Made by a program: the position numbers and the translations under genes
IMG/VR virus record: IMGVR_UViG_3300042564_003233
Coordinates: 1-28,370 of that record
Strand: one strand, 5' to 3'
DNA length: 28,370 nt
Source of the DNA: a virus
Notes under the pieces: model-generated
The model's input: only the letters and a program-made list of their open reading frames with translations
Told to the model about the DNA's origin: nothing
Database searches by the model: none
Part shown: one piece after another, positions 4,376-22,739 of the stretch
How positions within the stretch are numbered: position 1 is the first letter of the stretch
Layout of the letters: the number at the start of each line of letters is the position of its first letter

Positions 4376-4378
4376 TAA

Positions 4379-7383: not shown

Positions 7384-7386
7384 TTT

Positions 7387-9377: not shown

Positions 9378-9392
9378 TAAGAAGGTTATACG

Positions 9393-12300
9393 ATGCCATT
9401 AAATGTATTTAGAGCTTCAGGTAAGGCTGCTCCAGCCACACAAGTATTCAATGCCCCCGCAACATTCGTCGTTCCTGCAGGCGTATATTCTATAGATATA
9501 TCTGGTCGTGGCGGCAATGGAAACGCTGGTAATGCAGGCAATCCTGGTACTGCTGGCAATGCTGGTAATCCTGGAAATAATGGGGCCGCAGGAACTGGTG
9601 GTGCTGGTGGTACAGCTGGGACATCTGGCAATCCTGGCGCATCAGGAAATGCTGGCACAAACGGGGCCGGCGGAGCTGGCGGTGCTGGTGGTACAGCTGG
9701 AACATCTGGAAATCCCGGCGCATCAGGAAATGCTGGCACAAACGGTGCTGGCGGCCCAGGAGGAGCCGGAGGTGCTGCAGGGAATGCTGGGAATCCAGGT
9801 GCCACTGGCAATGCAGGTACGAATGGTGCTGGCGGAGCTGGCGGTGCTGGTGGTACTGCTGGAAATGCTGGAGCGACAGGAAACTCCGGCAATCCCGGTA
9901 CTAATGGTGCCGGTGGTGCAGGCGGTGCTGCTGGTAATGCTGGGAATCCAGGTGCCACTGGCAATGCTGGTAACCCAGGAACAAATGGCGCCGGCGGTGC
10001 TGGCGGTGCTGCTGGTAATGCTGGGAATCCAGGTGCCACAGGAAACTCTGGTAATCCTGGTACCAATGGTGCCGGCGGTGCTGGCGGTGCAAGAGGAAAT
10101 GCTGGGAATCCAGGTGCCACAGGAAACTCTGGAAATCCAGGAAATAATGGTGCCGGCGGTGCTGGTGGCACTGGCGGTAGCGCAGGTACGGGAGGAGGCG
10201 GCGGACAAGGTTCAGCCCGACCTTGCGGTGGCGGAGCCGGTAGCGGTGGTAGTCCGGGCGGTGGCTGCGGTTGTTTTGGCACCCCATTTGCGCCTTGTTC
10301 TGCCCCCGGCGGCGCCGGAGGCTCTCCTGGCGGAGGAAATGGTGGCTTTGGTGGAAGCGCAAATCTTGGGGGGTGCGTTTGCGGCGGCGGCGGTGGCGGC
10401 GGCGGAGGCGGCGGTAGCGGAGTGACTGGTAATTCAGGGAGTGCAGGTGGTGCGGGTGCCAATGGAAGTGCTGGAAATACTGGAGCCGCAGGATCAGGGG
10501 CAACTGCTGGAGCAGCAGGAAGTCCCGGTGGAGCTGGGGCCAATGGAAATGCTGGAAATACTGGAGCAGCAGGAACTGGAGCAAACGCTGGAGCAGCAGG
10601 AAGTCCTGGTGGAGCTGGTGCCAATGGTAATGCCGGCACAACAGGGGCGGCTGGAACTGGAGCAAACGCCGGAGCAGCAGGAAGTCCTGGCGGTGCCGGT
10701 GCTAATGGTAATGCCGGCACAACAGGGGCCGCAGGTACAGGGGCAACTGCTGGAGCAGCAGGAAATCCAGGTAATGCAGGCGCAGCAGGAAATACTGGAG
10801 CAAATGGTAATGCAGGAACAGGGGCAACCGCTGGATCTACTGGCAATCCAGGTAATGCCGGCGCAGCAGGAAATCCAGGTGCAAATGGTAATGCCGGCAC
10901 TGGAGCTAATCCAGGGGCAGCAGGGAGCCCTGGAAATGCCGGAGCAGCAGGAAATACTGGAGCAAATGGTAATGCTGGCACTGGAGCTAATCCAGGAGCA
11001 GCAGGAAATCCAGGCGGTGCCGGAGCTGCTGGTAATGCTGGGACTGGCGCAGCAAACGGAAATCCGGGATCAAGTGGAAACCCAGGCAACGTTTCAACGT
11101 TTGGTTCCTTAGCTAATTTTCCAGGTGGAACCGGTGGTACTGGTGGGGCTGGAGGAAATGCTACAAACGGAGCAGCTGGCTCGGCCGGAACTTCTGGAAA
11201 TCCAGGTGGATCAGGCAATCCCGGAAATAATGGGGCTGCAGGAACTGGCGGTGCTGGTGGTACAGCTGGGACATCTGGTGGTATTGGAGGAACAGGCAAT
11301 CCCGGTAACAATGGAGCTGCTGGTACAGGCGGCGCCGGAGGATCGGCCGGTACTTCCGGAGGTATTGGAGGAACAGGCAATCCCGGTAATAATGGAGCTG
11401 CAGGAACTGGTGGTGCTGGTGGTACAGCTGGGACATCTGGTGGTATTGGAGGAACAGGCAATCCTGGCACCAATGGGGCTGGTGGTGCAGGAGGAGCTGG
11501 TGGTAATGCTGGTAATCCAGGAGCCACTGGTAATGCCGGCAATCCAGGAAATAACGGTGCTGGTGGTGCAGGCGGTGCTGCTGGTAATGCTGGTAATCCA
11601 GGAGCCACTGGCAATGCTGGTAATCCAGGAAATAACGGTGCTGGTGGTGCAGGCGGTGCAAGAGGAAATGCTGGGAATCCAGGAGCCACTGGCAATGCTG
11701 GTAACCCAGGAACAAATGGCGCCGGTGGTGCAGGAGGAGCTGGTGGTACGGCGGGTAACTCCGGATCTCCTGGCAACGCTGGTGTAGGCGGAGGCGGCGG
11801 AGGCGGCGGAGGCGGAGGCGGAGCATCGGGTTGGACTTTAAAGCAAGGTGGTAGCGGCGCCGGCAATGCTGGTACCGCGGGTAATTCAGGCAACATAAGT
11901 GGTGCTACTAACGGCAACGGCGGCGCAGGCGGCAATGGAGGACTTCTTTCGGGCGCTGCCGGTGGTTCAGGTAATGCAGGAACACCAGGCAGCGCAGGAA
12001 ATACAGGAGCCGCAGGAACTGGAGCAAACGCTGGAGCAGCAGGAAGTCCTGGTAATGCAGGCGCCAATGGAAGTGCTGGAAATACTGGGGCCGCAGGAAC
12101 TGGAGCAAACGCTGGAGCAGCAGGAAGTCCTGGTAATGCCGGCGCTGCAGGAAGCGCTGGTACAACAGGAGCGGCAGGAACTGGAGCAAATCCAGGAGCA
12201 GCAGGAAGTCCAGGCGGTGCAGGAGCCAACGGAAATGCTGGTACAACAGGAGCGGCAGGAACTGGAGCAAATCCAGGAGCAGCAGGAAGTCCTGGTAATG

Positions 12301-12755
12301 CCGGCGCTGCAGGAAATGCCGGAGCGACTGGCAATGCAGGAACTGGAGCTACAAATGGTGCAGCTGGAAATCCAGGAGGTGCAGGAGCAGCAGGAAATGC
12401 TGGAGCGACTGGCAATGCAGGAACTGGAGCTACAAATGGTGCGGCTGGAAACCCAGGCGGTGCCGGAGCTGCTGGTAATGCTGGCACAACAGGAGCAGCT
12501 GGAACTGGAGCTACAAATGGTGCGGCTGGAAATCCAGGAGGCGCAGGAGCAGCAGGAAATACTGGCACAGCAGGTAGTGCTGGAACTGGAGCGACCGCCG
12601 GAACAGCCGGCACATCAAATCCTGGAGCATCAGGAAACGCTGGTAATATTGGTACTACGACAAATTCAGTATCAGTAAAAGTATACCCATATCAAATAGT
12701 TTCTATAAATATTGGAACAGGCAGCGCTAATGGTACGATGAGTGTAACATTTTAG
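9393..12755 (+). CDS. Giant Gly-X-Y low-complexity adhesin
   Basis: A 1120-residue protein. Residues 1 to about 40 are a non-repetitive cap (FRASG, then TFVVPAGVYSIDISGRGG). From about 40 to 1085 nearly everything follows Gly-X-Y triplets such as GNA, GNP, GAT, GTG, GAA and GSP. Proline sits in the Y position, giving many Asn-Pro-Gly and Ser-Pro-Gly sites. A cysteine island (C278, C292, C294, C302, C328, C330) leads into a poly-Gly run, and a second poly-Gly run (about residues 802-814) precedes a short unique SGWTLKQGG. The end is a beta-strand cap (SVSVKVYPYQIVSINIG, then GTMSVTF). The gene is visibly GC-richer than its neighbours. Poly-glycine adhesins such as gp38 of T4-like phage S16 are a structural precedent for a fibre-tip receptor binder; collagen-like trimerisation is an alternative. 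Confidence 0.8.
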   Translation: MPLNVFRASGKAAPATQVFNAPATFVVPAGVYSIDISGRGGNGNAGNAGNPGTAGNAGNPGNNGAAGTGGAGGTAGTSGNPGASGNAGTNGAGGAGGAGGTAGTSGNPGASGNAGTNGAGGPGGAGGAAGNAGNPGATGNAGTNGAGGAGGAGGTAGNAGATGNSGNPGTNGAGGAGGAAGNAGNPGATGNAGNPGTNGAGGAGGAAGNAGNPGATGNSGNPGTNGAGGAGGARGNAGNPGATGNSGNPGNNGAGGAGGTGGSAGTGGGGGQGSARPCGGGAGSGGSPGGGCGCFGTPFAPCSAPGGAGGSPGGGNGGFGGSANLGGCVCGGGGGGGGGGGSGVTGNSGSAGGAGANGSAGNTGAAGSGATAGAAGSPGGAGANGNAGNTGAAGTGANAGAAGSPGGAGANGNAGTTGAAGTGANAGAAGSPGGAGANGNAGTTGAAGTGATAGAAGNPGNAGAAGNTGANGNAGTGATAGSTGNPGNAGAAGNPGANGNAGTGANPGAAGSPGNAGAAGNTGANGNAGTGANPGAAGNPGGAGAAGNAGTGAANGNPGSSGNPGNVSTFGSLANFPGGTGGTGGAGGNATNGAAGSAGTSGNPGGSGNPGNNGAAGTGGAGGTAGTSGGIGGTGNPGNNGAAGTGGAGGSAGTSGGIGGTGNPGNNGAAGTGGAGGTAGTSGGIGGTGNPGTNGAGGAGGAGGNAGNPGATGNAGNPGNNGAGGAGGAAGNAGNPGATGNAGNPGNNGAGGAGGARGNAGNPGATGNAGNPGTNGAGGAGGAGGTAGNSGSPGNAGVGGGGGGGGGGGGASGWTLKQGGSGAGNAGTAGNSGNISGATNGNGGAGGNGGLLSGAAGGSGNAGTPGSAGNTGAAGTGANAGAAGSPGNAGANGSAGNTGAAGTGANAGAAGSPGNAGAAGSAGTTGAAGTGANPGAAGSPGGAGANGNAGTTGAAGTGANPGAAGSPGNAGAAGNAGATGNAGTGATNGAAGNPGGAGAAGNAGATGNAGTGATNGAAGNPGGAGAAGNAGTTGAAGTGATNGAAGNPGGAGAAGNTGTAGSAGTGATAGTAGTSNPGASGNAGNIGTTTNSVSVKVYPYQIVSINIGTGSANGTMSVTF
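12714..12721 (+). promoter_or_regulatory. Candidate late promoter inside 3' end of adhesin gene
   Basis: An exact TATAAATA, 41 bp before the adhesin stop codon region and about 60 bp before the gene at 12782. It encodes part of SINIG, so it could be chance, but position and orientation suit separate late expression of the downstream modification genes. Confidence 0.4.
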
Positions 12756-12781
12756 CACAAATAACAAAAAGGAAACAATAC

Positions 12782-13087
12782 ATGCTAGTAGGAATTAAAG
12801 ACGTTTATCTTTATACTGGTTTGACTACGACAGGTGGCAACGACTCTGCTGCAGCCTATCAGTGGCTACAGGATAATAACATTGAGTTTACTCATTTATC
12901 ATACAACGATAGTAGTCAATACGAATCTGTATTCAATGCTCTAAATACATGGGATATTGGAGAATTTACTGATTTTCCATTTGTCATCTACGATGAAAAA
13001 CATGACGATTTTACCGCAGTCAAACAAGCATTGATTGGCTTAGATGCCATCACAGAGAGCAACTTAGTCGAACTAGCAGCCCTGTAA
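12782..13087 (+). CDS. Glutaredoxin/thioredoxin-fold-like protein lacking CxxC
   Basis: A 101-residue protein preceded by AGGAAA. It shows the order of a glutaredoxin fold: a first strand DVYLYTG (residues 7-13), a helix SAAAYQWLQDNN (22-33), a second strand IEFTHLSY (34-41), a helix SVFNALNTW, then FTDFPFVIYDE where Pro66 would be the cis-proline before a strand. The usual Cys-x-x-Cys position is occupied by TTTGGN (residues 15-20), and the protein has no cysteine, so thiol redox activity is not expected. It may be a binding or scaffold version of the fold. Assignment is by pattern only. Confidence 0.5.
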   Translation: MLVGIKDVYLYTGLTTTGGNDSAAAYQWLQDNNIEFTHLSYNDSSQYESVFNALNTWDIGEFTDFPFVIYDEKHDDFTAVKQALIGLDAITESNLVELAAL

Positions 13088-13115
13088 TTTACATATATAT
13101 AATAGAGTCATTCAT

Positions 13116-13322
13116 TTGGAACATGTTAACATACAAAGAATGGCATTGGTAATGCGTTGCTATGACAAACTTCCACCACATCTCAGAATATGGATCTCAA
13201 GCTTACATTTTAGTTTGCATGATGATCATATTCTGAGAGGTGCGAGCGACGTCGAGCAATGTAAAAAATTTATTGAATCTGGTGGAATACACTATGAAAA
13301 ACCTGGAAATGGACAAAATTGA
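13116..13322 (+). CDS. Small hypothetical protein (TTG or internal ATG start)
   Basis: A 68-residue protein if it begins at the TTG at 13116, which has a weak AGAG upstream; an in-frame ATG at 13140 gives 60 residues but has poor ribosome-binding context. The sequence has an aromatic and basic centre (YDKLPPHLRIWISSLHFSLHDD) and then DVEQCKKFIESGG. Its stop overlaps the ATG of the next gene (TGATG), so it appears to be a genuine member of the operon. No family is recognised. Confidence 0.55.
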   Translation: MEHVNIQRMALVMRCYDKLPPHLRIWISSLHFSLHDDHILRGASDVEQCKKFIESGGIHYEKPGNGQN

Positions 13323-14035
13323 TGTTTTCGTTTTTTGAAAAGAATGAGCCTAAACTAGAATTTCTTTGCTATGATGATGATTTAGGAAATATACCAGAAC
13401 CTTATCCTGCCCGCAAACTGATACCAGAATGGTATAAAGCTTTGCCAATGAAGAAGGATGTAGGCTTTGATCAATCTACTCTCAAAAGATGCCCACCTTT
13501 TCTTGATGCGATGATCACGGGTTGGATTATTCCACTCGTTGCTGATGTTGAAATCACTTCGAATGAAGATTGTTCGTTCATTGAATACAACAGCAAATAT
13601 CCGAGAGCAATGATCGAGAATCATTTACAGTGGCAAGTAACATCTGACAAATGCCCCGCTCCACATTTACCAAAACCTCCAATTAAATTCATGAACTGGT
13701 GGGCAATCAACTGCCCGAAAGGATACTCACTGTTGTTTGTTCCACCATTAAATAGACCTGATCCAAGATTTACTTGTTTTTCGGGTATGGTAGACTGCGA
13801 TGGTTATTTTGAGTTTATTAACTTTCCATTTGTTTGGAACGAACCCAATTTTAAAGGTATTCTACCTGCTGGTACACCGTTAATGCAGGTTATTCCAATT
13901 AAAAGAGATACTTTGTTTTCGAAAAATGTATGTAGAGCATTCAATGAAACTGAACTGAAAGCACTCAAAGGTACACGTAGAAAGCTTCAAAGTCATGAAT
14001 CCCATTATCGAGATAATATTTGGGAGCGTAAATAA
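13322..14035 (+). CDS. DUF6065-like protein, copy 1
   Basis: A 237-residue protein. I use the ATG at 13322, which overlaps the previous stop, rather than the TTG one codon earlier. Motifs: IPEWYKALP (residues 34-42), KRCPPFLDAMITGWIIPL (55-72), a central GYSLLFVPPLNRPDPRFT, GMVDCDGYFEFINFP, and AGTPLMQVIPIKRD near residues 184-198. The same motifs in the same order occur in the protein at 21415 and, more diverged, at 20678. The pattern 'GY-x-L...P-N...G-x-V-x-x-D...G-x-P...P-x-x-R' resembles DUF6065 as I remember it; no activity is known. Its stop overlaps the next start (TAATG), the start of a 2OG oxygenase, so the two are tightly coupled. Confidence 0.75.
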   Translation: MFSFFEKNEPKLEFLCYDDDLGNIPEPYPARKLIPEWYKALPMKKDVGFDQSTLKRCPPFLDAMITGWIIPLVADVEITSNEDCSFIEYNSKYPRAMIENHLQWQVTSDKCPAPHLPKPPIKFMNWWAINCPKGYSLLFVPPLNRPDPRFTCFSGMVDCDGYFEFINFPFVWNEPNFKGILPAGTPLMQVIPIKRDTLFSKNVCRAFNETELKALKGTRRKLQSHESHYRDNIWERK

Positions 14036-14631
14036 TGGCAGTATATCAAATAGCTCCTTCTCCATCGTTAGGTATACCAGAAATTTCTTTTGCATCATGG
14101 CGTGATGGTTTTACTGAAGAAGAGATCGATAAAATAGTTAGTATTGGTGATAGTCTCACGATCAAATCTGCTAGTGTTGGACCTGATAGTAAAGTTGAAG
14201 AAGCAGTTAGATCATCTAAAATAGGTTGGATAAATCTTACGCCCGAGACTAATTTTATATATGATAGAATTGCTTTCATAGCAAGACAACTGAACGGTGA
14301 ATTCTTCAATCTAGATATATGGGGATTTGTAGAGGACTTTCAGTATACTATATACGATGGAAAAGACGATCATTATACGTGGCATCTTGACAGAGGTGGA
14401 AATGCAACGAATGCGCCTCGCAAATTATCTCTTGTAATACAATTATCTGATCCTTCTGAATACGAGGGGGGAGATCTTGAGATATTTGATGCACCCGTGC
14501 CGACTCAAGTCACAAAACAAAAAGGTTTAGTAGTTGCATTCCCGTCCTTTATTTTACACAGAGTAACTCCTGTGACAAAAGGCATTCGTAAAACTCTAGT
14601 AGTATGGTTAGCTGGTCCTCAATTTAAGTGA
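14035..14631 (+). CDS. 2OG-Fe(II) oxygenase, prolyl-4-hydroxylase/PKHD type
   Basis: A 198-residue protein with the complete jelly-roll iron site: H117-x-D119 in YTWHLDRGG, H175 in FILHRVTPV, and R185 in GIRKTLVVW for binding the 2-oxoglutarate carboxylate. LSDPSEYEGGDLEI (residues 137-150) is typical of P4Hc/PKHD-type hydroxylases. The family uses Fe(II), O2 and 2-oxoglutarate to hydroxylate protein side chains (proline in P4H) or small molecules. It shares layout and exact motifs with the protein at 22146. It lies directly after a DUF6065-like gene and two to three genes below the Gly-X-Pro-rich adhesin, a plausible substrate. Substrate is inferred. Confidence 0.88.
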   Translation: MAVYQIAPSPSLGIPEISFASWRDGFTEEEIDKIVSIGDSLTIKSASVGPDSKVEEAVRSSKIGWINLTPETNFIYDRIAFIARQLNGEFFNLDIWGFVEDFQYTIYDGKDDHYTWHLDRGGNATNAPRKLSLVIQLSDPSEYEGGDLEIFDAPVPTQVTKQKGLVVAFPSFILHRVTPVTKGIRKTLVVWLAGPQFK

Positions 14632-14637
14632 GATAAT

Positions 14638-15096
14638 ATGACAAGAGAATGTGGAAGTTGCACGAAGTGCTGCGGTTGGTTAACTGGAGAAGCTCTTGGC
14701 CATCAATTTTGGCCAGGAAGGAAATGTCATTTTGTAACTACAAAAGGATGTTCGATACATGAACAACGACCTGAGAATCCGTGCAAATCGTTTAGCTGTG
14801 TATGGTTAGGAAATGAAAAGTTTCCACTCGGTCTTGATACTATTCCGATGTGGATGAAACCAGACGAATCAAACGTAATTATGGTTTGGAGACAACACGA
14901 AAATCCTGATCTTAGCTTTTTACAACTGCTTGAAGCAGGCGCTCCGCTAACAGCCGAAATACTTAGTTGGGCTATTCAGTATGGTTTGAACAACGGTTTA
15001 AATATATTTTATCAAGTCAACAGTGGTTGGAATAAGATTGGAAACCGACTGTTTTTAGATACAGTGATAGAGGCTGATCTTTCCCAATATACATAA
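14638..15096 (+). CDS. YkgJ-like Cys-cluster (CxxCxxCC) metal-binding protein
   Basis: A 152-residue protein. The N-terminus has C5-x2-C8-x2-C11-C12, followed by C30, C38 in GCSIHEQRP, C49 and C54 in NPCKSFSCVW. That spacing and the 'C-x-x-(H/Y)-x-x-RP-x-x-C-x-x-F' pattern are those of the YkgJ/PF03692 putative zinc- or iron-chelating family. The family also contains the flagellin lysine methylase FliB, so roles in metal handling or protein modification are both known. It starts seven bases after the oxygenase stop and is followed by more oxygenases. Supplying iron to them or acting on fibres itself are hypotheses. Confidence 0.8.
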   Translation: MTRECGSCTKCCGWLTGEALGHQFWPGRKCHFVTTKGCSIHEQRPENPCKSFSCVWLGNEKFPLGLDTIPMWMKPDESNVIMVWRQHENPDLSFLQLLEAGAPLTAEILSWAIQYGLNNGLNIFYQVNSGWNKIGNRLFLDTVIEADLSQYT

Positions 15097-15111
15097 CATA
15101 AGGATTTTATT

Positions 15112-15750
15112 ATGACAGACATACTTGATCAGTGGCAGTATTTTAGCTCACCTATCTATAGTATTATGAAGCCAGAACTTCTTGATTTCTCAAGAGCAGC
15201 ATCAAATGCGGCGTTAAGGGCCGCGCGCAAAATAACAAAAATAAACGATGTATATCCAGTCGTGCAAGCAGATGTGTCTAACGAAGAAGATCTTCTTCCA
15301 CTGATACAGTACACATTAAACACAGCATGGAATCTTTTGAGCGATCAAGGATACAACATGAATGGACTTTCGACTTATCTTACCGAATGTTGGAGTCAAG
15401 AACACCATAAGTATTCATCAATGGAGTATCATAATCACAGCGACTGTCAGTTAGTTGCTTTTTATTTTTTAGAGTGCCCGAAAGATCCTCCGCGAATGGT
15501 GATTCATGATCCGCGACCAATGAAACTTATGTTACCACTATACGAACATAATTCTTCTAACATTACCACAGCAACATCGTCTATTAATTTTACGCCAGTT
15601 CCTGGTCAACTAATGTTTGCAAATTCCTGGCTACCGCATAGCTTTACTCGTAACACATCAACCAAACCTTTCAAATTTATTCACATGAACATTGGTACAC
15701 GTCCGTACATTGAACCTATAGTATATGATGCAACAGCAGAAATAATCTAA
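15112..15750 (+). CDS. 2OG-Fe(II) oxygenase-like protein (TIGR02466/PF13759 style)
   Basis: A 212-residue protein with the pattern of the small phage and bacterial 2OG-FeII_Oxy_5 group. It has MEYHNHSDCQLVAFYFLECP (H107/H109 as metal-ligand candidates), VIHDPR (130-135), and PGQLMFANSWLPHSFTRN with H176 as the distal ligand. A clear Arg for 2-oxoglutarate in the final strand is missing (KFIHMNIG), so co-substrate binding may differ. AAGGAT precedes the start. Known members oxidise unidentified substrates; here the neighbours point to virion-protein or cell-surface modification. Confidence 0.72.
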   Translation: MTDILDQWQYFSSPIYSIMKPELLDFSRAASNAALRAARKITKINDVYPVVQADVSNEEDLLPLIQYTLNTAWNLLSDQGYNMNGLSTYLTECWSQEHHKYSSMEYHNHSDCQLVAFYFLECPKDPPRMVIHDPRPMKLMLPLYEHNSSNITTATSSINFTPVPGQLMFANSWLPHSFTRNTSTKPFKFIHMNIGTRPYIEPIVYDATAEII

Positions 15751-15751
15751 T

Positions 15752-15973: not shown

Positions 15974-15991
15974 ATTATTATCGGTGAAATT

Positions 15992-16600
15992 ATGAACTTA
16001 GAATTTTCAGAAATAAAACTTTATAACCCAGGAGTTCTTAAAACAAGAATTCCAGTTTCTATTTTTGCTGAGTTGACTTGTGACTTGCAAAAGCAAGTTG
16101 ATAATAATCCGGAAAAATACAATACTAATTTAGCTGGGCAATTAGAAACAGAATTTCAGTATGTTATTAACGGGCAGTTTAGAGAATGCATAGAGCAAAC
16201 GTTTCTTGAATATAGAAGAAAATTTAATTTTTATGAAAATCATAATTATGTCATTGATAATGATGCTTGGGTAAATTTTCAGAAGAAACACGAATATAAT
16301 CCAATACATTTTCACCACAAAGCTATTTCATGGGTGATATGGATTGCAATTCCTTATGATTTAGAAGAGGAATTAAATATGCCAAATGTAAGAGAATCAA
16401 ACTATAAAGTTGCATCAAAGTTTGAATTCATTTATAACTCATTAGACGGTGGAATTAGTACGACTCAATTAGATATTGATAAGACATGGGAAGGTTCTCT
16501 TATTATGTTTCCAAATTATCTTAAGCATCAGGTATATCCGTTTCAAACTTCAGACGAACATCGTATTTCTATTTCTGGTAATATAGACATTAGAAATTAA
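15992..16600 (+). CDS. 2OG-Fe(II) oxygenase (TIGR02466/PF13759 style)
   Basis: A 202-residue protein with NPIHFHHKAISWVIWIAIP (H106 and H108/H109 metal-ligand candidates), EGSLIMFPNYLKHQVYPF with H179 as the distal ligand, and EHRISISGNIDI with R191 for 2-oxoglutarate. This is the full pattern of the small 2OG-FeII_Oxy_5 group and is more canonical than the neighbour at 15112. It is the last gene of the rightward late operon; its stop overlaps the stop of the leftward operon. Base composition is visibly AT-richer than the fibre genes. Confidence 0.8.
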   Translation: MNLEFSEIKLYNPGVLKTRIPVSIFAELTCDLQKQVDNNPEKYNTNLAGQLETEFQYVINGQFRECIEQTFLEYRRKFNFYENHNYVIDNDAWVNFQKKHEYNPIHFHHKAISWVIWIAIPYDLEEELNMPNVRESNYKVASKFEFIYNSLDGGISTTQLDIDKTWEGSLIMFPNYLKHQVYPFQTSDEHRISISGNIDIRN

Positions 16601-17220
16601 TTGGGCGAAGTGGAGTTAAGACTACAATTGTCCCAGAAATTGATGAGTATGCTCTTGCGAGAGCCGCTTTTGATTTCATTGACCCAATGGTAGTATCGAC
16701 TGCCTTCGAAGTATAAGACCGCACCTTCGGTAGGTTGAAAAGACTCGTGTGTATATTTTAACAATTCTTCTTTTAAAACTTCCGGAGGGCTCAGTTCTTT
16801 TTCATAGTCTAACCAACTTCTTTCAGAAATACAAAATTCTCCGCCTTCAAGATCGATTGCTTCTAAGTAACACGATATGGTAATTGGAGACATTAATTCT
16901 TCTGGTTTCAACTTTTCTCCAGCCTCAATTCTGTGCCGAAGCTTTTCATTAAAATCTACATGAGGCCACAAATCTCCAGAAGATTTATACGCCTGATACC
17001 AATATTCAATATGAGTTTTGTTACAATTAAACTGTTCTCTGTCGAGAAATTCAAGCACAGCTTCATCTGTTTTATTTGTAGGCGCATTACGATCAAAGTA
17101 ATGCATGTTCGTATGCCTATTTAAACCTTCAAGAAAAGTTAAGCGAATATCTTCATCGAGAGTAGATCTACGAATAATCCTCGAGTTTCCATGGTACATT
17201 TTCAAATCTTTCAAAAACAT
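16597..17220 (-). CDS. 2OG-Fe(II) oxygenase, HxD type
   Basis: A 207-residue protein with H87-x-D89 in WPHVDF, YLEAIDLEGGEFCI before the second half, H178 in YFEGSRYYHWVNEI, and R188 in GSRKSILINFW. These are the metal and 2-oxoglutarate ligands of the P4Hc-type superfamily. The start overlaps the sulfotransferase gene by 53 bases; a second Met at residue 8 would reduce this to 32. It is the last gene of the leftward operon. Substrate unknown; proximity to a sulfotransferase suggests sequential tailoring of one target. Confidence 0.8.
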   Translation of the reverse strand: MFLKDLKMYHGNSRIIRRSTLDEDIRLTFLEGLNRHTNMHYFDRNAPTNKTDEAVLEFLDREQFNCNKTHIEYWYQAYKSSGDLWPHVDFNEKLRHRIEAGEKLKPEELMSPITISCYLEAIDLEGGEFCISERSWLDYEKELSPPEVLKEELLKYTHESFQPTEGAVLYFEGSRYYHWVNEIKSGSRKSILINFWDNCSLNSTSPN

Positions 17221-17872
17221 ATTTAGCAGCCTCTTTATTCTTTAAAGATTTACCAAAAGCCTTGACGAAACTGTTTGGCATTTTCTTATAGGAAGAAGCT
17301 CCTGCTTTATTATCACATTCTGCTGGATGTCGAGAAATTTCTAACTCGTCACATATCTGATTGATATTGGTTTGAGTAAAAAAATCCTCATAAAAGAAGT
17401 AGAGCGGATTTGCGAACACACTGTCCAAAGCTTCGATAGTTTCTTTATATTTACATGATATGAAATTGCTCATGACAAATCGTGAAGCTAACGACCGATT
17501 TGGAATTTTACCTCCTCCAATCATATTCCAAGAAGACCAACTCCTCTGAATAGGATCTCTCATAATATAAACTGGTACTACTTCGATATCGTATTTTAGT
17601 AAACCGTTTTTAATAAGTCGAAAGATGTTCTCACTCGAGCCTTCATAATGTGTGAAGTCGCCTGTGACTTGATTTATATTTGAAACAGCCCGAAAAAAAG
17701 ACTCTATGTCTTTTCTATATTCGCTTACATCTTCTAAGACAGGAACTAAATCGTCTCTCTGAATAATATTCAGTTCTTTTCCCATATCATAGAAATCTGG
17801 GTGTTCTTTAAAATACTCATATAACCAAGTAGTGCCAGATTTCTCGGCTCCTACATTCAATAAAAACTTCAT
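17168..17872 (-). CDS. PAPS-dependent sulfotransferase
   Basis: A 234-residue protein. The 5'-phosphosulfate loop is at residues 7-17 (VGAEKSGTTWL, with K11), and the 3'-phosphate site is IMRDPIQRSWSSW at residues 103-115 (R105 and S113, spaced by eight as in the family). Length fits compact Sulfotransfer-type enzymes, which move sulfate from PAPS to a hydroxyl or amine on a glycan, tyrosine or small molecule. Its ATG overlaps the upstream stop (ATGA). Possible acceptors are hydroxylated or glycosylated fibre residues, or host surface polysaccharide. Confidence 0.88.
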   Translation of the reverse strand: MKFLLNVGAEKSGTTWLYEYFKEHPDFYDMGKELNIIQRDDLVPVLEDVSEYRKDIESFFRAVSNINQVTGDFTHYEGSSENIFRLIKNGLLKYDIEVVPVYIMRDPIQRSWSSWNMIGGGKIPNRSLASRFVMSNFISCKYKETIEALDSVFANPLYFFYEDFFTQTNINQICDELEISRHPAECDNKAGASSYKKMPNSFVKAFGKSLKNKEAAKYVFERFENVPWKLEDYS

Positions 17873-18423
17873 AGATTTAATTGTATTAATATATTTCTAA
17901 AATTTGGCCCGTGCGTTGGAGAATCTACGTCTTCTAAAAGTTCATAGTTTGCTGCGTTTGCTCGCATACGCAAAGTTCTATGAAAGATTGAATTTGCAGG
18001 AATATTTCTATACAAATGTTTAGTTATACCAATTTCAATATTAAAATTATTTTTGGCTGTTACATTTTCTTGATTAAAAACGTAATTTCTAGAACCGTTT
18101 TCATCCGGAGCAGTGAGTGAATGTCTGCCATCTAATGTTCCATTTTCAAGGATAAACCCGCTTACAAATCCCATATCTTTTCCAGCTACAGTATCAAAAG
18201 CTCTTATCATAATATAAGTATCATTTGCGCCATGAGGATTTAATCCTGGCCACTCATTATTAATTCCGCTTTCAATTAATGTGCGCATGTTGGTTTTTCG
18301 TTCGGCGTCAGTTAATGTAGAATTTTCCGGCCAATTCGCATCAATAGCATCCTTTGATCTTTCATACAAGTCATCAAAATCTATTTCTGACAAATCATTT
18401 ATAACAGTATAAACAATATTCAT
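17869..18423 (-). CDS. Unknown protein, possible GNAT-like fold
   Basis: A 184-residue protein with alternating strand and helix: YIMIRAFDTV, KDMGFVSGFILENGTL, FNIEIGITKHLYRNIP, then a helical TLRMRANAANYELLEDV. The central strand-turn-strand arrangement recalls an acetyltransferase fold, but the acetyl-CoA loop (Q/R-x-x-G-x-G/A) is not evident, so the call is weak. It is coupled by 4-base ATGA overlaps to the desaturase upstream and the sulfotransferase downstream. GATAAATA, one mismatch from a late promoter, sits at 18461-18468 on the same strand. Confidence 0.6.
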   Translation of the reverse strand: MNIVYTVINDLSEIDFDDLYERSKDAIDANWPENSTLTDAERKTNMRTLIESGINNEWPGLNPHGANDTYIMIRAFDTVAGKDMGFVSGFILENGTLDGRHSLTAPDENGSRNYVFNQENVTAKNNFNIEIGITKHLYRNIPANSIFHRTLRMRANAANYELLEDVDSPTHGPNFRNILIQLNL

Positions 18424-19145
18424 ATCTTAACTCTCTTTGTAGCTATTATGTCTGCGATGGTATTTATCCAACCTTCTTTGCTTGTATCAAATGGTTGTTC
18501 GTGGTGTTGTTTATGCATATGTTCTCCACCACTGATAATTCCGTACCAAAATCCCATATCTTTTGGACCGTTTTTATCATGATTTAGAGATGCGATTCCT
18601 GTGGACCATATCGACAATGTAGCAGGAACAATGTAAATAAACAAGTATGCTGGTAACGATATGAATAACAATAGAAACGGTAAGAATAACAAAATCCAGT
18701 ATTTTTCATAGAAGAAATTGGTAATCTTATTACGAATCAGTCTGACTGTTGTTTTCAAATTTATTTGATTCGTGTCATTATTCCAAAGAATTGGAAAAAG
18801 TATTTTCCAACCTTGCAAATGGTAAGGATGCGGATCCTTCTGAGTGTCATGATACTTGTGATGATTGTCGTGCGATACACAGAATTCAAGCGGCGAAGCA
18901 AATGAACCATAGAATCCGAATGCCGTGCATATGAATTCTACGATAGGATTCATTGTATGCGTACGATGATTGTGGATTCGATGATACGTAATCGATCCAC
19001 CTATTACTCTCATCAAAAAGAACGCTGTGAGTGAAACAATTATCCATGGAAAAGTTGCATATTGAATCAGAGCCCAGATTGTAATAAATGGGCCTGCTAA
19101 TTGCGCGAATGTAAGCACATATCTTTTATGAACTTTTAGATTCAT
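18420..19145 (-). CDS. Membrane fatty acid desaturase (acyl-CoA delta-9 type)
   Basis: A 241-residue protein starting at ATG 19145; an in-frame TTG at 19157 is less likely. Three histidine boxes bind the di-iron centre: HRIHNHRTH (residues 55-63), HDNHH (92-96) and HKQHH (211-215). Hydrophobic spans lie near residues 11-48 and 150-180, with two likely hairpins. The order and spacing are those of stearoyl-CoA/delta-9 acyl desaturases. Phages of marine cyanobacteria are known to carry desaturases. It could alter host membrane lipid during infection. Its place between sulfotransferase-type genes also leaves open a surface-lipid role. Confidence 0.9.
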   Translation of the reverse strand: MNLKVHKRYVLTFAQLAGPFITIWALIQYATFPWIIVSLTAFFLMRVIGGSITYHRIHNHRTHTMNPIVEFICTAFGFYGSFASPLEFCVSHDNHHKYHDTQKDPHPYHLQGWKILFPILWNNDTNQINLKTTVRLIRNKITNFFYEKYWILLFLPFLLLFISLPAYLFIYIVPATLSIWSTGIASLNHDKNGPKDMGFWYGIISGGEHMHKQHHEQPFDTSKEGWINTIADIIATKRVKI

Positions 19146-19662
19146 AATACGAATCAATCTCTTTTATAATAGACTCTTTGCCAGGATACGAATCAAGTAA
19201 AGGCATATGTGTGTCTTCGATACCATAATAATCTTCGTACCAAACAACTTCTTTTTGGTATTTATTTAAATACGCGACGAGTGCACGATAATCATTATAC
19301 ATCAAACCAATATTAAAACGAATGGCATTGGGTTTTAATTCGGGATATACTTTTAGCAAATAATTTGCCATACTTAAAGCAGCGTTTCTCATATTTTTAC
19401 GAAGTATAAAGAAACTTGCCTGATTGGCTAAAAGATACGAGTGTTGATTTACAAGTACGATGTGTTCACTATGATCTTGTAACAAGTCGGCAAACGAATC
19501 TTGCGTAAAATTTGTTTGATGCTTAGTTTCGTGAGTAAGTTGTTTTCTATTACTTTGAATGTGAACAGGATGTAACTCTCCCACAAATGGTAAACTTGTT
19601 TTCTCTTGGAGATCCAAGCAAAAACGAGTAGCACCACATCGTGGAAGAGAACAAACGATCAT
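19126..19662 (-). CDS. Sulfotransferase-like P-loop protein
   Basis: A 178-residue protein. The N-terminal IVCSLPRCGATRFCLDLQ (residues 2-19) resembles the 5'-phosphosulfate loop 'S-x-P-R-(S/C)-G-(S/A)-T' of sulfotransferases. FILRKNMRNAALSMANYLL (residues 85-103; R88, S97) resembles the 3'-phosphate site, with spacing one residue longer than usual. It is shorter than typical enzymes, so it may be a minimal or non-catalytic member. Its start overlaps the glycosyltransferase stop by four bases, and its end overlaps the desaturase start by 20. Similar proteins occur in T4-like marine phages as far as I recall. Confidence 0.55.
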   Translation of the reverse strand: MIVCSLPRCGATRFCLDLQEKTSLPFVGELHPVHIQSNRKQLTHETKHQTNFTQDSFADLLQDHSEHIVLVNQHSYLLANQASFFILRKNMRNAALSMANYLLKVYPELKPNAIRFNIGLMYNDYRALVAYLNKYQKEVVWYEDYYGIEDTHMPLLDSYPGKESIIKEIDSYYESKSS

Positions 19663-20681
19663 TCTTCATCTTCACTCATAAAAAGAGTTTTCGGCAATTT
19701 CACTTTCTTCTTCGGTTTCTTCGAAATAGCAAGAAGATCAATTTTACCTGGAACAACGTCAAGACTATAAGTTCGAGCACGATCTTCAATATCAAGATTA
19801 ATAAAGTCTACACCAAATTCTTTGTGGAATTCAGAAAGAAGATCTTCTCTGCATGCCTCAAGATATTTTTTCCATTGCCAACGACCGATCTCTGAAAGTA
19901 TTTTTCTTCTTCGCGCAGCTTTCGCATCTTCTGGCGGAGTTTTCGTATGCCAATTACTCGTGTCTTCTAAGTGATATGAAACCATCTTACTGTGATGGAA
20001 CATTTTATATCCAGCAGCGTATGACATCATCGTCATCATGACTTCTTCTCCTACAAAGAAGACTTTTGGATCTAATCCGACATTGTCAATCCAATCGACA
20101 TGCGTAAAGAAGTTTCCTGCCATAATATGAAACGCCGGTCTTGGCATATCAGTCGATGGAATCGCGTCTCCATGTACATCTGGAATCAAAGTATCCGGAT
20201 CAATAGTATAATACTTGACTTGACAAGCATCATTTTCTTCTTGACAAAGATAAGTTTTAATCTCTCCGTCTTTTTCTTCAATTATAAATGATTTACATGA
20301 TCCAGTAATGATGACTTTATTGGTTTCACACATATCCATCGCTCTCTTATAATCTTCAATCAGAGCTCGATCCCAATTCATATCATGTAACATATGTGAG
20401 TCGACTTGATAAATGAAGTCATACTCGTTTGTGATATTTAACATATTAATATATCTTGCCCAAACACAACCATCAGAGTATTCGGGATCGATTCTTTTAT
20501 AGATGACATCATCTCGACTTACAAGCACAGGTTCTGTGCACGCCAACGAATCTTCATAACGAGTTTGCTCGAAGATCGAATAGACTACATTATTCCGATT
20601 GGATTTGGTTTGCATCATACTCTTGATGGTATGAGGAAGTAAAGGATCTTGATACGAGCATACTGAAACAAAAATGTTCAT
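19659..20681 (-). CDS. Skp1-type GlcNAc-transferase-like (GT60, PF11397)
   Basis: A 340-residue GT-A enzyme. Motifs in order: IFVSVCSYQDPLLPHTIKSM (residues 3-22), SIFEQ (35-39), DGCVWARYINM (70-80, with the G-x-x-W-A-R core), YQVDSHMLH (91-99, the D-x-H metal motif), IMAGNFFTHVDW (186-197), and LDPKVFFVGEEVMM (203-216). This is the pattern of the PF11397 'GlcNAc' family, founded on the Dictyostelium enzyme that adds GlcNAc to hydroxyproline of Skp1. A basic tail (KKPKKKVKLPK) ends the protein. It sits four genes below a repeat adhesin and three below a P4H-type oxygenase. Donor and acceptor are inferred from the family. Confidence 0.82.
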   Translation of the reverse strand: MNIFVSVCSYQDPLLPHTIKSMMQTKSNRNNVVYSIFEQTRYEDSLACTEPVLVSRDDVIYKRIDPEYSDGCVWARYINMLNITNEYDFIYQVDSHMLHDMNWDRALIEDYKRAMDMCETNKVIITGSCKSFIIEEKDGEIKTYLCQEENDACQVKYYTIDPDTLIPDVHGDAIPSTDMPRPAFHIMAGNFFTHVDWIDNVGLDPKVFFVGEEVMMTMMSYAAGYKMFHHSKMVSYHLEDTSNWHTKTPPEDAKAARRRKILSEIGRWQWKKYLEACREDLLSEFHKEFGVDFINLDIEDRARTYSLDVVPGKIDLLAISKKPKKKVKLPKTLFMSEDEE

Positions 20682-21418
20682 TGTTTATTCTCTTCTTTTT
20701 GCATATTAAATTTCTTTTTTATTCCCATATACTTTCGATAGTATTGCTTATCATCTCCGGGAATTAGATTCATAGTTTTATCTATCATCTCATCTGAAGC
20801 TGGGCCAACAGAAGCAGTAATATCTTTATTGAGGAAAGGAATGACGTGCAACAAAGGTTCTCCCGCTTTAATGTGAACGTTACATTCTCTTTTCGGCATG
20901 CAAATGAAGTTTGTAATATGGAAACTCTTATAGTCTACCAAACCAGGAGTTATGTATAGATCTTCAAGAAAAGTAGAATGATAAAATGCAGGCATTAACA
21001 ATGCGCTAATGTTTTTTTGAGTAAAAATTTTCCAAGGAGATGGAAATAAGATTGCTGTAGGATCAATTCCAATTGGAGTAAATGCGCCTTCTACAAATTT
21101 TTCATCCATCTTTACGCCATTGTCAAATCCGCGATCTCCTCTCGGTCCTCTGTCTCCAAGATACCAAGAAGTACCAGCTTTATTTGCCATAATATGAATG
21201 TCTACCCACGCCGGAATGATATAGCCAAATTGAGCATAGTCTAAAATTCCCGGACAGTATGGCATCAGATGCTTGCCATACTTGTCTTGTTGAACCTTGC
21301 GAGTATTTGTTGGAACATCAATCGCTCGTTCAACAGAAAAGTTATGATAAGATAACTTCTTAGTATCTACGAATTCAATATCTTTCTTTGGTTTTAATAA
21401 AGAAAACAAGTTTTTCAT
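20678..21418 (-). CDS. DUF6065-like protein, diverged copy 3
   Basis: A 246-residue protein. It keeps the family order: CPGILDYAQFGYIIPAWVDI (residues 55-74), PWKIFTQKNISALLMPAF, TPGLVDYKSFHITNF, and IKAGEPLLHVIPF. It has lost the PEWYK motif of the other two. Residues 88-97 (GDRGPRGDRG) form a short Gly-X-Y-like insert with an RGD tripeptide, absent from the paralogues. ATGA overlaps join it to genes on both sides. Function unknown; repeated coupling of this family with 2OG oxygenases suggests a partner or substrate-presenting role. Confidence 0.65.
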   Translation of the reverse strand: MKNLFSLLKPKKDIEFVDTKKLSYHNFSVERAIDVPTNTRKVQQDKYGKHLMPYCPGILDYAQFGYIIPAWVDIHIMANKAGTSWYLGDRGPRGDRGFDNGVKMDEKFVEGAFTPIGIDPTAILFPSPWKIFTQKNISALLMPAFYHSTFLEDLYITPGLVDYKSFHITNFICMPKRECNVHIKAGEPLLHVIPFLNKDITASVGPASDEMIDKTMNLIPGDDKQYYRKYMGIKKKFNMQKEENKQ

Positions 21419-22152
21419 TTTCTTGGTACTCTCAATTCTTTTGTATATACGCTTCTTCGAGTGTTTTGCATCTTTGATATGATATTAATTAAGTGATGTT
21501 CATCTTCTTTCATGTTTCGAATATTGGGCTTTGATGGAACAGCATCACGCTTAATTGGAATGGCAATGACTAAAGGTGTACCAGCAAGTAAAAGCACGTC
21601 GGCATTTGGAGTGTGCCAGATTGCAGGAAAATTGACTTCTTTTGGATATGTATCTGTATCAACTAATCCTGACAGACATGTAAAATGGCTTTCAAAGTTA
21701 TTAATCGGAGCTATGAAAAGAGTCGACCAACCCGGAGCAGTCTTTACAATCCATGGATTGACAAACTTCAAAGGAGGTGCAGGAAATCCAGGAGCAGATC
21801 TTTCTCCAAGTTGTCGAATGTCATGAAACTCACATACGTTGATCTGTGGAGAAGACGTGACTTCAATTGTACTGCAGTCGTGATTTGATCTGACTGTCAA
21901 GTCGCCGATAAGAGGAATGACATATCCTAATGACATTGCGTCGATCATCGGCATGCATTTTTTTGCAGTAAAGCTATGAGATCCTGACCAATCACGATCA
22001 TCTCTTCCATCTGTAATCAGTGGAGGAATTCTTTTATACCATTCTGGCATATATTTTGCCGCAGGCTTTGGCTGAGGTAATGCCTCAACATCATCGCGAT
22101 GGCAATAAAACTCAATAATAGGTTTCTTTTTAAAAGGATTCCAACTCAACAT
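21415..22152 (-). CDS. DUF6065-like protein, copy 2
   Basis: A 245-residue protein and clear paralogue of the + strand copy at 13322. Shared blocks are MPEWYKRIP (residues 35-43), KKCMPMIDAMSLGYVIPL (64-81), SNHDCSTIEV, GWSTLFIAPINNFESHFTC, GLVDTDTYPKEVNFPAIW, and AGTPLVIAIPIKRD. It overlaps the P4H-type oxygenase gene upstream by seven bases and gene 20678 downstream by four. The conserved Asp, Cys and Pro-rich blocks could form a binding site, but no known catalytic triad or metal motif is visible. Confidence 0.75.
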   Translation of the reverse strand: MLSWNPFKKKPIIEFYCHRDDVEALPQPKPAAKYMPEWYKRIPPLITDGRDDRDWSGSHSFTAKKCMPMIDAMSLGYVIPLIGDLTVRSNHDCSTIEVTSSPQINVCEFHDIRQLGERSAPGFPAPPLKFVNPWIVKTAPGWSTLFIAPINNFESHFTCLSGLVDTDTYPKEVNFPAIWHTPNADVLLLAGTPLVIAIPIKRDAVPSKPNIRNMKEDEHHLINIISKMQNTRRSVYTKELRVPRK

Positions 22153-22739
22153 TCTCTCTCACCCATTACCCATGCTACAAGACTCTTACGAAAACCAGAA
22201 GTGATTGGCTTCACTCGATGTGGCATCCATGAAGCGAAGAATACGATATCACCTTTATTCGGTTTAAACGAAACTTTGTCTTCAAAGTTTCCGTTGTTTA
22301 CGATCTCTAACTCTCCACCTTCATATTCACTCGGATCTGAAAGAAGCAGAGATGCTGAGATCTTTCTTATATATTTCTGCCAGCCAAATTCAACATCCCA
22401 ATGCCATGTATAATGTTGATTTGGTCCGTACTTTGTATATTGAAAAGCTTCGACGCCTTCGATATCATACATAAAGTTGTCGTAGTTCACGACAGAAACG
22501 ATTCCTGACATTCTCTGAAATAGCCAATCACTGTGTTGATCATGATGTATCCACGAGATATCAGAATCTCGCGTTTCAGCCGGAGCTGCGGCATTCTTCT
22601 CTAGCCCAACTTTTCCTTTTTCAAACTCTTGGAGTTTTTCGAGATCGATAATTTTATCGACTTCTTCAGGAGTAAATCCTCCCGACCATACTGCAAAGCA
22701 ATTCAATTGTTTCCCATATTTAGGAATAATATATGGCAT
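22146..22739 (-). CDS. 2OG-Fe(II) oxygenase, prolyl-4-hydroxylase/PKHD type
   Basis: A 197-residue protein with H113-x-D115 in YTWHWDVEF, LSDPSEYEGGELEIV (133-147), H174 in SWMPHRVKPI, and R184 in GFRKSLVAWVMG. All iron and 2-oxoglutarate ligands are present. It is a close paralogue of the + strand enzyme at 14035, sharing exact blocks around YTWH and SDPSEYEGG. GAGGAT precedes the ATG. It follows the FN-repeat adhesin gene by 21 bases and is coupled to a DUF6065-like gene, the same partnership as on the + strand. Hydroxylation of proline (or Asn/Lys) in the adhesin is the leading hypothesis. Confidence 0.88.
   Translation of the reverse strand: MPYIIPKYGKQLNCFAVWSGGFTPEEVDKIIDLEKLQEFEKGKVGLEKNAAAPAETRDSDISWIHHDQHSDWLFQRMSGIVSVVNYDNFMYDIEGVEAFQYTKYGPNQHYTWHWDVEFGWQKYIRKISASLLLSDPSEYEGGELEIVNNGNFEDKVSFKPNKGDIVFFASWMPHRVKPITSGFRKSLVAWVMGEREC

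What the first reader, a model, noticed from the sequence alone, without database searches (positions are those of the whole stretch)
9393..22739. Possible phage pathway that hydroxylates and GlcNAc-modifies its own fibre proteins
Seen: two prolyl-4-hydroxylase/PKHD-type 2OG oxygenases (14035 and 22146) lie near two adhesins full of X-Pro-Gly sites (NPG and SPG in 9393; IPG and VPG in 22761). A PF11397/GT60-like enzyme (19659) is in the same operon as one oxygenase and its adhesin. Known: animal collagen P4H acts on proline in X-Pro-Gly, and the founding GT60 enzyme puts GlcNAc on hydroxyproline of Skp1 after a P4H acts. Inference: the phage may build hydroxyproline-GlcNAc, possibly sulfated, on its receptor-binding adhesins, a eukaryote-style modification in a virion.
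Basis: partly seen in the sequence, partly recalled or inferred. Interest (0 to 1): 0.9.

Follow-up and report, generated by a model that had tools for sequence, protein, structure and literature searches.

The report
Phage module that modifies its adhesins
This uncultured phage, like many of its relatives, keeps a protein-hydroxylating enzyme and a protein-type sugar-transferring enzyme in a fixed gene order right behind a long repetitive receptor-binding adhesin, which suggests that it chemically decorates its own fibres in a way so far known mainly from eukaryotes.

Summary
The genes named are real: PF13640 oxygenases at 14035 and 22146, a PF11397 (GT60-type) glycosyltransferase at 19659, repetitive adhesins at 9393 and 22761. 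Of 34 GT60 clusters (95% identity), 31 have enough upstream DNA, and all 31 carry the oxygenase within 1.6 kb upstream; 27 show oxygenase–DUF6065–DUF6065–GT60. The oxygenase tree splits (support 100/99) by neighbouring adhesin: one clade goes with Gly-X-Y adhesins and no GT60, the other with [Tyr/Phe]-Asn repeat adhesins and GT60.

Corrections: the two oxygenases are separate lineages, so GT60 is tied only to 22146/22761. X-Pro-Gly is not the constant signature of GT60-linked adhesins: Tyr/Phe-Asn is enriched in 33–35 of 36, Pro-Gly in 20–21. The window's sulfotransferases look accessory (5–6 of 34 loci). In the Gly-X-Y branch Pro sits before Gly, the collagen-P4H position, unlike other collagen-like fibres of these phages.

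The GT60 model best matches polypeptide GalNAc-transferases (Z 22). Hydroxylation and then sugar addition on adhesin repeats is the best explanation; acceptor, sugar and chemistry are unproven. In 50,697 phage records GT60 searches found only three distant relatives (25–28% identity).

The parts
22761..24452 (-). Adhesin of the GT60-linked module: N-cap, [Tyr/Phe]-Asn repeats (FNAPTNGPQN, FNIIPG...), C-cap; presumed substrate
   Evidence: sequence; [YF]N 45 vs 10 expected; in relatives the [YF]N adhesin gene ends within 70 bases of the oxygenase gene in 30 of 36 non-redundant cases
22146..22739 (-). 2OG-Fe(II) oxygenase, P4H/PKHD-like, clade paired with [YF]N adhesins
   Evidence: PF13640 64.6 bits; HxD and Arg invariant in 53 of 53; tree
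21415..22152 (-). DUF6065 protein a, predicted dUTPase-like fold, role unknown
   Evidence: PF19541 47.7 bits; AF2 pLDDT 77.5; Foldseek/VIA dUTPases
20678..21418 (-). DUF6065-like protein b, homologue of a
   Evidence: hhalign 96% to a; phrog_7084 1e-19; no Pfam match
19659..20681 (-). PF11397 (GT60-type) glycosyltransferase with D-S-H motif
   Evidence: PF11397 86.8 bits; D-x-H and a later H invariant in 31 of 31; GalNAc-T fold
9393..12755 (+). Gly-X-Y repeat adhesin, Pro almost only in the Y position; presumed substrate of 14035
   Evidence: Y 40, X 1 in the tracts of a near-identical copy (L262); 52 Pro-Gly
14035..14631 (+). 2OG-Fe(II) oxygenase of the Gly-X-Y clade
   Evidence: PF13640 56.4 bits; tree
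13319..14035 (+). DUF6065-like protein c, beside the second oxygenase
   Evidence: phrog_7084 1e-59; profile hit in near-identical L182
19126..19662 (-). Possible sulfotransferase-like accessory gene
   Evidence: no family match; P-loop-like start by inspection; homologue in 6 of 34 GT60 loci
18420..19157 (-). Desaturase-like accessory gene
   Evidence: weak DesA-family match below cut-off; 7 of 34 loci
17168..17872 (-). Sulfotransferase, accessory
   Evidence: PF00685 27.7 bits vs cut-off 22; 5 of 34 loci
16597..17220 (-). Further 2OG oxygenase, accessory
   Evidence: PF13640 27.7 bits, just over its cut-off of 27; 5 of 34 loci

Best explanation
The window carries two phage adhesin-modification modules. 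In module 1 (24452 to 19659, minus strand) the phage makes a long fibre/adhesin of [Tyr/Phe]-Asn, Pro-rich repeats. The P4H/PKHD-like oxygenase made from the next gene hydroxylates residues in those repeats, most likely Pro, possibly Asn. The GT60-type enzyme, which has the predicted fold of polypeptide GalNAc-transferases, then adds a HexNAc or other sugar to the repeats, probably to the new hydroxyl. The two DUF6065 proteins (dUTPase-like fold) assist in an unknown way. In module 2 (9393 to 14631, plus strand) a related adhesin with Gly-X-Y repeats is hydroxylated on Y-position Pro by its own oxygenase and is not glycosylated by GT60. Shown: the genes, the fixed order, conserved catalytic residues, the clade-by-adhesin split and the Pro positions. 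Inferred: substrate, order of reactions, sugar, and a benefit such as fibre stability, masking or receptor choice.
For: P4H within 1.6 kb upstream of GT60, same strand, in 31 of 31 judgeable clusters, 27 with P4H-DUFa-DUFb-GT60 and 4 with P4H-GT60. The four-enzyme core is also on a Chitinophagaceae MAG contig. P4H tree of 74: one clade 34 [YF]N + 1 unassigned, the other 31 Gly-X-Y + 8 unassigned, support 100/99; for the [YF]N label 0 of 500 shuffles needed as few changes. Y- versus X-position Pro: 365 Y/101 X in 11 proteins with a P4H just downstream, 79 Y/2010 X in 20 others. Cap search without oxygenase sequence finds a P4H in 23 of 28 loci. Catalytic HxD and Arg 53 of 53, GT60 D-x-H 31 of 31. 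GT60 model on pp-GalNAc-T2: Z 22.4, rmsd 3.5, 273 aligned. Nearest solved oxygenases by sequence are PKHD PiuC and, weakly, P4H 5c5t.
Against: No protein chemistry. X-Pro-Gly is not conserved in GT60-linked adhesins, and two of them (L161, L176) are Pro-poor and stand 1.4 kb from the oxygenase with other genes between. Genetic linkage could also serve another target. In the lineage L165/L166/L168/L171 the oxygenase next to GT60 has lost the distal metal His, although a second copy with it is present. Of 7 loci with a related oxygenase from phage records, 4 lack any such repeat protein. Adjacent and non-adjacent Gly-X-Y proteins are also different protein types, and no good set of cap-bearing adhesins without an oxygenase was found as a control.
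Confidence: 0.6

Rival explanations
1. The GT60-type enzyme works like a mucin-type GalNAc-transferase on Ser/Thr of the repeats, independent of hydroxylation; the oxygenase only hydroxylates for stability.
For: Best structural matches are polypeptide GalNAc-transferases. Ser/Thr lies near 63-100% of the [YF]N units, by adhesin, in all 36 adhesins.
Against: In 31 of 31 judgeable clusters GT60 has the oxygenase beside it, and no row of the Gly-X-Y oxygenase clade (0 of 39) has GT60 within 2.5 kb downstream, so the two steps look coupled. The founding GT60 enzyme acts on hydroxyproline (GT60 label recalled; pathway passages in PMC11570480).
Confidence: 0.2
2. The repeats are modified at Asn (beta-hydroxy-Asn) or at the aromatic residue of the conserved [Tyr/Phe]-Asn, with the sugar on that residue.
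For: [YF]N is by far the most constant dipeptide: z>3 in 35 of 36 adhesins, or 33 of 36 if the upstream ORF is chosen without regard to [YF]N, against 16 of 36 for the next one, PG. It stays strong in the Pro-poor adhesins (44 and 32 copies with 3 and 1 PG).
Against: [YF]N may be purely structural. The sister clade pairs with Y-position Pro. No Asn-specific family was matched.
Confidence: 0.15
3. Nucleotide or DNA modification: 2OG hydroxylation, a glycosyltransferase and dUTPase-like proteins build a hypermodified base, and the adhesin is only a neighbour.
For: DUF6065 has a predicted dUTPase fold. In HF1 a DUF6065 gene lies near a ribonucleotide reductase gene. Hydroxylate-then-glycosylate is also the logic of base J and T4 DNA (recalled).
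Against: Oxygenase clades follow adhesin type, and Pro position in the adhesin follows the oxygenase. The GT fold is polypeptide-type. The module sits among tail fibre and neck genes.
Confidence: 0.08
4. Moron cassette for host surface or small-molecule chemistry, inserted at a fibre-gene hotspot and co-inherited by linkage.
For: Accessory sulfotransferase, desaturase, GT and 2OG genes vary between relatives. Cyanophages carry 2OG and halogenase clusters behind fibre genes.
Against: The four-enzyme core keeps its order while accessory genes and adhesin sequence change, and the adhesin repeats track the oxygenase clade.
Confidence: 0.12

Closest known systems
Skp1 prolyl hydroxylation/glycosylation pathway (PHYa + Gnt1, Toxoplasma; PhyA in Dictyostelium)
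   Same: A P4H-like oxygenase followed by a glycosyltransferase on its product (passages of PMC11570480); Gnt1 as a GT60/PF11397 enzyme is recalled
   Different: Phage operon; presumed target is a multi-repeat adhesin, not one Pro of Skp1; PKHD-like rather than PHD-like oxygenase by nearest sequence; two DUF6065 partners; no search was made for the later Skp1 transferases
Viral collagen-type P4H (5c5t; its origin from chlorovirus PBCV-1 is recalled) and the printed link between virus-borne P4H and collagen in tail fibres (PMC9301287, passages)
   Same: Virus-encoded P4H-like oxygenase; Gly-X-Pro-Gly proteins in the 14035 branch
   Different: Direct gene pairing with a receptor-binding-type adhesin, a glycosyltransferase partner in the other branch, and a non-collagen [YF]N substrate there
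Bacillus P4H and glycosylated BclA collagen (passages of PMC8968730)
   Same: Prokaryotic hydroxylation of collagen-like sequence; Y-position Pro favoured
   Different: Bacterial spore protein; nothing on a GT60/DUF6065 operon in the passages seen
Polypeptide GalNAc-transferases (GT27)
   Same: Closest solved folds, Z about 22; D-x-H metal motif (motif in GT27 recalled)
   Different: 10-15% identity; PF11397 by sequence; the 340-residue protein has no room for the lectin domain of that family (recalled)
dUTPase superfamily
   Same: Predicted fold of DUF6065a (Z 10.5)
   Different: 6-16% identity; motif II and the C-terminal motif V not recognisable by inspection (motifs recalled)

Membership tests
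PF11397 / GT60 glycosyltransferase | Profile match over curated cut-off | tested here: met
   86.8 vs 21 bits; 14 of 14 aligned members match at E 0.001
PF11397 / GT60 glycosyltransferase | GT-A fold with acidic metal motif | tested here: met
   predicted model only: AF2 pLDDT 82.6; GT-A matches; D-x-H invariant 31 of 31
PF11397 / GT60 glycosyltransferase | Transfers GlcNAc to hydroxyproline | not testable with these tools
   needs enzyme assay
2OG-Fe(II) oxygenase, P4H/PKHD group | PF13640 match and HxD...H...R | tested here: met
   distal His pattern in 300 of 305 ORFs of the family
PKHD-type hydroxylase YbiX/PiuC (NCBIfam equivalogs) | Score over equivalog cut-off | tested here: not met
   22146: 64.7 vs 143 and 38.8 vs 399 bits; 14035: 62.8 vs 143 and 39.8 vs 399
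Collagen-type P4H system | Target protein with Pro in the Y position of Gly-X-Y (14035 branch) | tested here: met
   365 Y/101 X in proteins with a P4H just downstream vs 79 Y/2010 X elsewhere
Collagen-type P4H system | X-Pro-Gly conserved in the target of the GT60-linked oxygenase | tested here: not met
   PG enriched z>3 in 21 of 36 (20 of 36 with neutral choice of ORF), fewer than 10 PG in 13 of 36
Skp1-type hydroxylation/glycosylation pathway | P4H-like and GT60-type enzymes coupled | tested here: met
   31 of 31 judgeable clusters
Skp1-type hydroxylation/glycosylation pathway | Hydroxyproline is the sugar acceptor | not testable with these tools
   needs mass spectrometry
DUF6065 (PF19541) | Profile match over cut-off for 21415 | tested here: met
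   47.7 vs 26.6 bits
DUF6065 (PF19541) | Profile match over cut-off for 20678 and 13319 | tested here: not met
   no Pfam match at E 0.1; both hit phrog_7084; 20678 is homologous to 21415 by hhalign
dUTPase | dUTPase fold | tested here: met
   predicted model of 21415 only
dUTPase | dUTP hydrolysis | not testable with these tools
   needs assay; motifs II and V not seen by inspection (recalled motifs)

The most novel reading that the evidence does not exclude
A dedicated phage pathway co-evolves an oxygenase and a polypeptide-type glycosyltransferase with a hypervariable repeat adhesin. The oxygenase hydroxylates the [Tyr/Phe]-Asn/Pro repeats and GT60 puts a sugar on the new hydroxyl, so the fibre is a densely glycosylated, mucin- or extensin-like rod whose chemistry is oxygen-dependent. 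A sister oxygenase clade makes hydroxyproline-stabilised Gly-X-Y fibres.
Probability: 0.4. Interest if true: 0.88.

Novelty: new variant of a known kind. Interest (0 to 1): 0.74.

Why it matters
Receptor-binding fibres decide phage host range, and they are normally taken to be bare protein. A phage-encoded hydroxylation-plus-glycosylation operon tied to adhesin repeats would be a eukaryote-style modification system in bacterial viruses. It would make adhesin function depend on oxygen and 2-oxoglutarate in the host, and give compact enzyme-substrate pairs (hydroxylase alone, or hydroxylase with glycosyltransferase) for making modified repeat proteins in E. coli. It also proposes a role for phage P4H-like genes, whose use a Baltic Sea virome paper says 'remains cryptic' (PMC9301287, passages), and a context for DUF6065, a term found in no paper of the library searched.

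Tried and rejected
Rejected: one shared pathway for both oxygenases (tree). Rejected: X-Pro-Gly as the general substrate signature of the GT60-linked adhesins. Rejected: sulfation as a core step (homologues of the window's two genes in 5 and 6 of 34 loci; these loci reach at most 10 kb from the match and several are cut short, so the counts are lower bounds). Unrelated sulfotransferase-family genes do sit in or near two other module lineages (L176, PF03567; L080, PF00685), so an accessory role stays open.

Led nowhere: no PDB relative of GT60 by sequence (one match at E 0.33 to an unrelated protein); no GT60 of this subfamily in 50,697 phage records (three records at 25-28% identity each time); the [YF]N cap alignment was too variable to scan; no control set of cap-bearing adhesins without an oxygenase large enough to compare Pro content (5 of 28 lacked one; of these L281 ends right after the adhesin, L285 is only 4.1 kb long and L303 lacks the cap). 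Both AF2 jobs went to DUF6065a and GT60, so the adhesin fold is untested.

Row choices and biases: I dropped 1 of 35 clusters (XacN1, 62 bits) and could not judge 3 with under 1.1 kb upstream. One search kept 80 of 111 GT60 relatives, and one search kept 80 of at least 573, so the rest were not examined. In one search the adhesin was taken as the upstream ORF with most [YF]N, which favours [YF]N; one search repeats it with the longest ORF ending within 100 bases of the oxygenase: 33 of 36 instead of 35 of 36 (the three others are L148, z 2.6, and L161 and L176, where another gene lies between; 9 of 165 oxygenase genes had no such ORF). In one search the Gly-X-Y label itself required more Y than X Pro, so the Pro-position claim rests and not on the tree; 9 of 74 rows had no label. 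In one search L235 counts as non-adjacent (P4H 1.9 kb away) and L245 as adjacent (plain GPQ fibre with an ORF between); both work against the trend and were kept. In one search I looked at 20 of 80 loci: 15 have a Gly-rich ORF with 9 or more Pro-Gly near the oxygenase, 5 do not (L245, L247, L248, L250, L254; some are cut short). L106's Gly-X-Y label rests on 2 Y against 1 X Pro. The caps in A5 came from loci that had been fetched with an oxygenase.

Full report
Observation. The window is a virus record of 28,370 bases from a T4-like phage: its neck protein is nearest to that of Stenotrophomonas phage DLP_6 at 65% identity. Oxygenases matching PF13640 lie at 14035-14631 (+) and 22146-22739 (-). 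A PF11397 glycosyltransferase lies at 19659-20681 (-). Two large repetitive proteins lie at 9393-12755 (+) and 22761-24452 (-). The four enzyme genes 22146, 21415, 20678 and 19659 overlap by 4-7 bases and follow the adhesin gene 22761 after 21 bases.

A conserved module. Relatives were fetched from 2.9 million viral contigs with the GT60 protein, with both oxygenases and with a GT60 alignment (two searches returned capped lists). ORFs were then scored with profiles of the four enzymes. The 191 GT60 ORFs collapse to 35 clusters at 95% identity. One (XacN1, 62 bits) is a distant outlier, and three have too little upstream sequence. In all 31 others an oxygenase of this family lies within 1.6 kb upstream of GT60 on the same strand (29 seen; L165 and L166, where the GT60 frame as listed begins inside the oxygenase gene). 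In 27 the order is oxygenase-DUF6065a-DUF6065b-GT60. In four (L165, L166, L168, L171) it is oxygenase-GT60, with a second adhesin-oxygenase-DUF6065a-DUF6065b set next to it. In the eight representative loci printed the flanking genes and the adhesin differ greatly, so linkage within a recently copied segment is an unlikely cause. The four-enzyme core is also on one 4.4-kb MAG contig labelled Chitinophagaceae, possibly phage DNA in the bin. Among 50,697 phage records only three distant GT60-like genes at 25-28% identity were found.

Adhesins. They keep an N-terminal cap and a C-terminal cap around hypervariable repeats. Of 36 non-redundant adhesins upstream of oxygenases of the GT60-type module, 35 are enriched (z>3) for Tyr/Phe-Asn and 21 for Pro-Gly, and 13 have fewer than ten Pro-Gly. 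That choice of ORF favours [YF]N; with the longest ORF ending within 100 bases of the oxygenase, whatever its content, it is 33 of 36 and 20 of 36. In a scan of all dipeptides (Phe merged with Tyr) Tyr-Asn is first (median z 7.3-8.0) and Pro-Gly second (2.8-2.9). Pro nevertheless follows within six residues in 38-100% of the [YF]N units, depending on the adhesin.

The second branch. Of 20 loci looked at around relatives of 14035, 15 hold a Gly-rich ORF with nine or more Pro-Gly near the oxygenase. In Gly-X-Y tracts of 31 non-redundant proteins, the 11 with an oxygenase within 1.5 kb downstream carry Pro mainly in the Y position (365 Y, 101 X; 61 of the X from one protein, L245). The other 20, mostly plain collagen-like fibres of the phages in hand, carry it in the X position (2010 X, 79 Y; 65 of the Y from L235, whose oxygenase is 1.9 kb away). 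Pro in X is also the common case in bacterial collagens, and Y is where human collagen carries hydroxyproline (passages of PMC8968730). Caveat: the two groups are also different protein types. A search with the 9393-type cap and no oxygenase sequence gave 45 loci; of the 28 examined, 23 hold an oxygenase of this family, but the caps in the query came from oxygenase-bearing loci.

Two oxygenase clades. A maximum-likelihood tree of 74 non-redundant oxygenases splits with support 100/99 into 35 rows (34 with a [YF]N adhesin, 1 unassigned; 29 with GT60) and 39 rows (31 Gly-X-Y, 8 unassigned; none with GT60 within 2.5 kb downstream). For the [YF]N label, 0 of 500 shuffles needed as few changes. Hence 14035/9393 and 22146/22761 are separate enzyme-adhesin pairs, and GT60 belongs to the second. 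HxD and the presumed 2OG-binding Arg are invariant in 53 of 53 non-redundant oxygenases. The distal His is present in 300 of 305 ORFs; the five exceptions are oxygenases directly followed by GT60 in the tandem lineage, where it is Ser or Ala. Against a strict link: of 7 loci with a related oxygenase from phage records, 4 hold no Gly-rich or [YF]N repeat protein and 3 hold a Gly-rich protein that is not clearly of this type.

Enzymes. The nearest solved relatives of 22146 are PKHD-type PiuC (E 2e-6) and, weakly, the P4H 5c5t (E 0.014). NCBIfam PKHD equivalog cut-offs are not reached. The GT60 model (pLDDT 82.6) best matches human polypeptide GalNAc-transferase 2, VIA Z 22.4, rmsd 3.5 over 273 residues, and D-x-H plus several other residues are invariant in 31 of 31. 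Fold does not show donor or acceptor. DUF6065a (pLDDT 77.5) has a dUTPase-like fold (Foldseek E 5.5e-4; VIA Z 10.5, rmsd 3.2 over 120 residues). DUF6065b is its homologue. 13319 and both others hit phrog_7084, function unknown. Relatives lie in haloarchaeal tailed viruses and in cyanophage Syn9 directly after tryptophan halogenases. Their role here is open; a trimeric chaperone or a nucleotide-related function are guesses.

Mechanism. I judge hydroxylation of the adhesin repeats by the neighbouring oxygenase likely, and sugar addition by GT60 to the same repeats likely. Sugar on the newly made hydroxyl, as in the Skp1 pathway (passages of PMC11570480), is less certain. The acceptor may be Pro, Asn, Tyr or Ser/Thr. 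Sulfation is at most an accessory step.

Prior art. Searches covered a library of open-access papers. A Baltic Sea virome paper mentions P4H, collagen in tail fibres, and that the use of P4H by viruses remains cryptic (PMC9301287, passages). I saw no paper on a P4H-GT60-adhesin module in phages in those listings; subscription papers are mostly not held. Verdict: a real, widely conserved adhesin-linked module, a new variant of known hydroxylate-and-glycosylate systems, with untested chemistry.

Noticed in passing
window 14035-14631, 15112-15750, 15992-16600, 16597-17220, 22146-22739, 27145-27696: The window holds at least five 2OG oxygenase genes with Pfam matches over cut-off (14035, 15112, 15992, 16597, 22146), plus a DUF6445 gene at 27145.
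   Followed up: partly
L165, L166, L168, L169, L171 (oxygenase directly before GT60): In these tandem-module phages the oxygenase next to GT60 has Ser/Ala in place of the distal iron-binding His, while a second copy keeps it; a possible non-catalytic partner or a changed chemistry.
   Followed up: partly
L176 1860-2549: A Sulfotransfer_2 family gene sits between the [YF]N adhesin and the oxygenase; the L161 gene in the same place has no Pfam match.
   Followed up: partly
L105 (Synechococcus phage syn9) 5747-10488: A DUF6065 relative (gp43) lies directly after two tryptophan halogenase genes, with one small gene between it and a 2OG oxygenase, behind tail fibre assembly genes: perhaps another fibre-modification island.
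   Followed up: no
L106 (P-RSM4) 4190-7546, L308 (S-CAM8) 4184-7543: In cultured cyanophages a Gly_rich_2 protein with 12 Pro-Gly lies next to a carbamoyltransferase gene and a related 2OG oxygenase gene.
   Followed up: partly
window 14638-15096: Cys-rich protein with a CxxCxxCC start, no Pfam or NCBIfam match; homologues in 6 of 34 GT60 loci.
   Followed up: no
window 9386-12613, minus strand: A 1075-aa open frame antisense to the Gly-X-Y adhesin, probably a shadow of the repeat.
   Followed up: no
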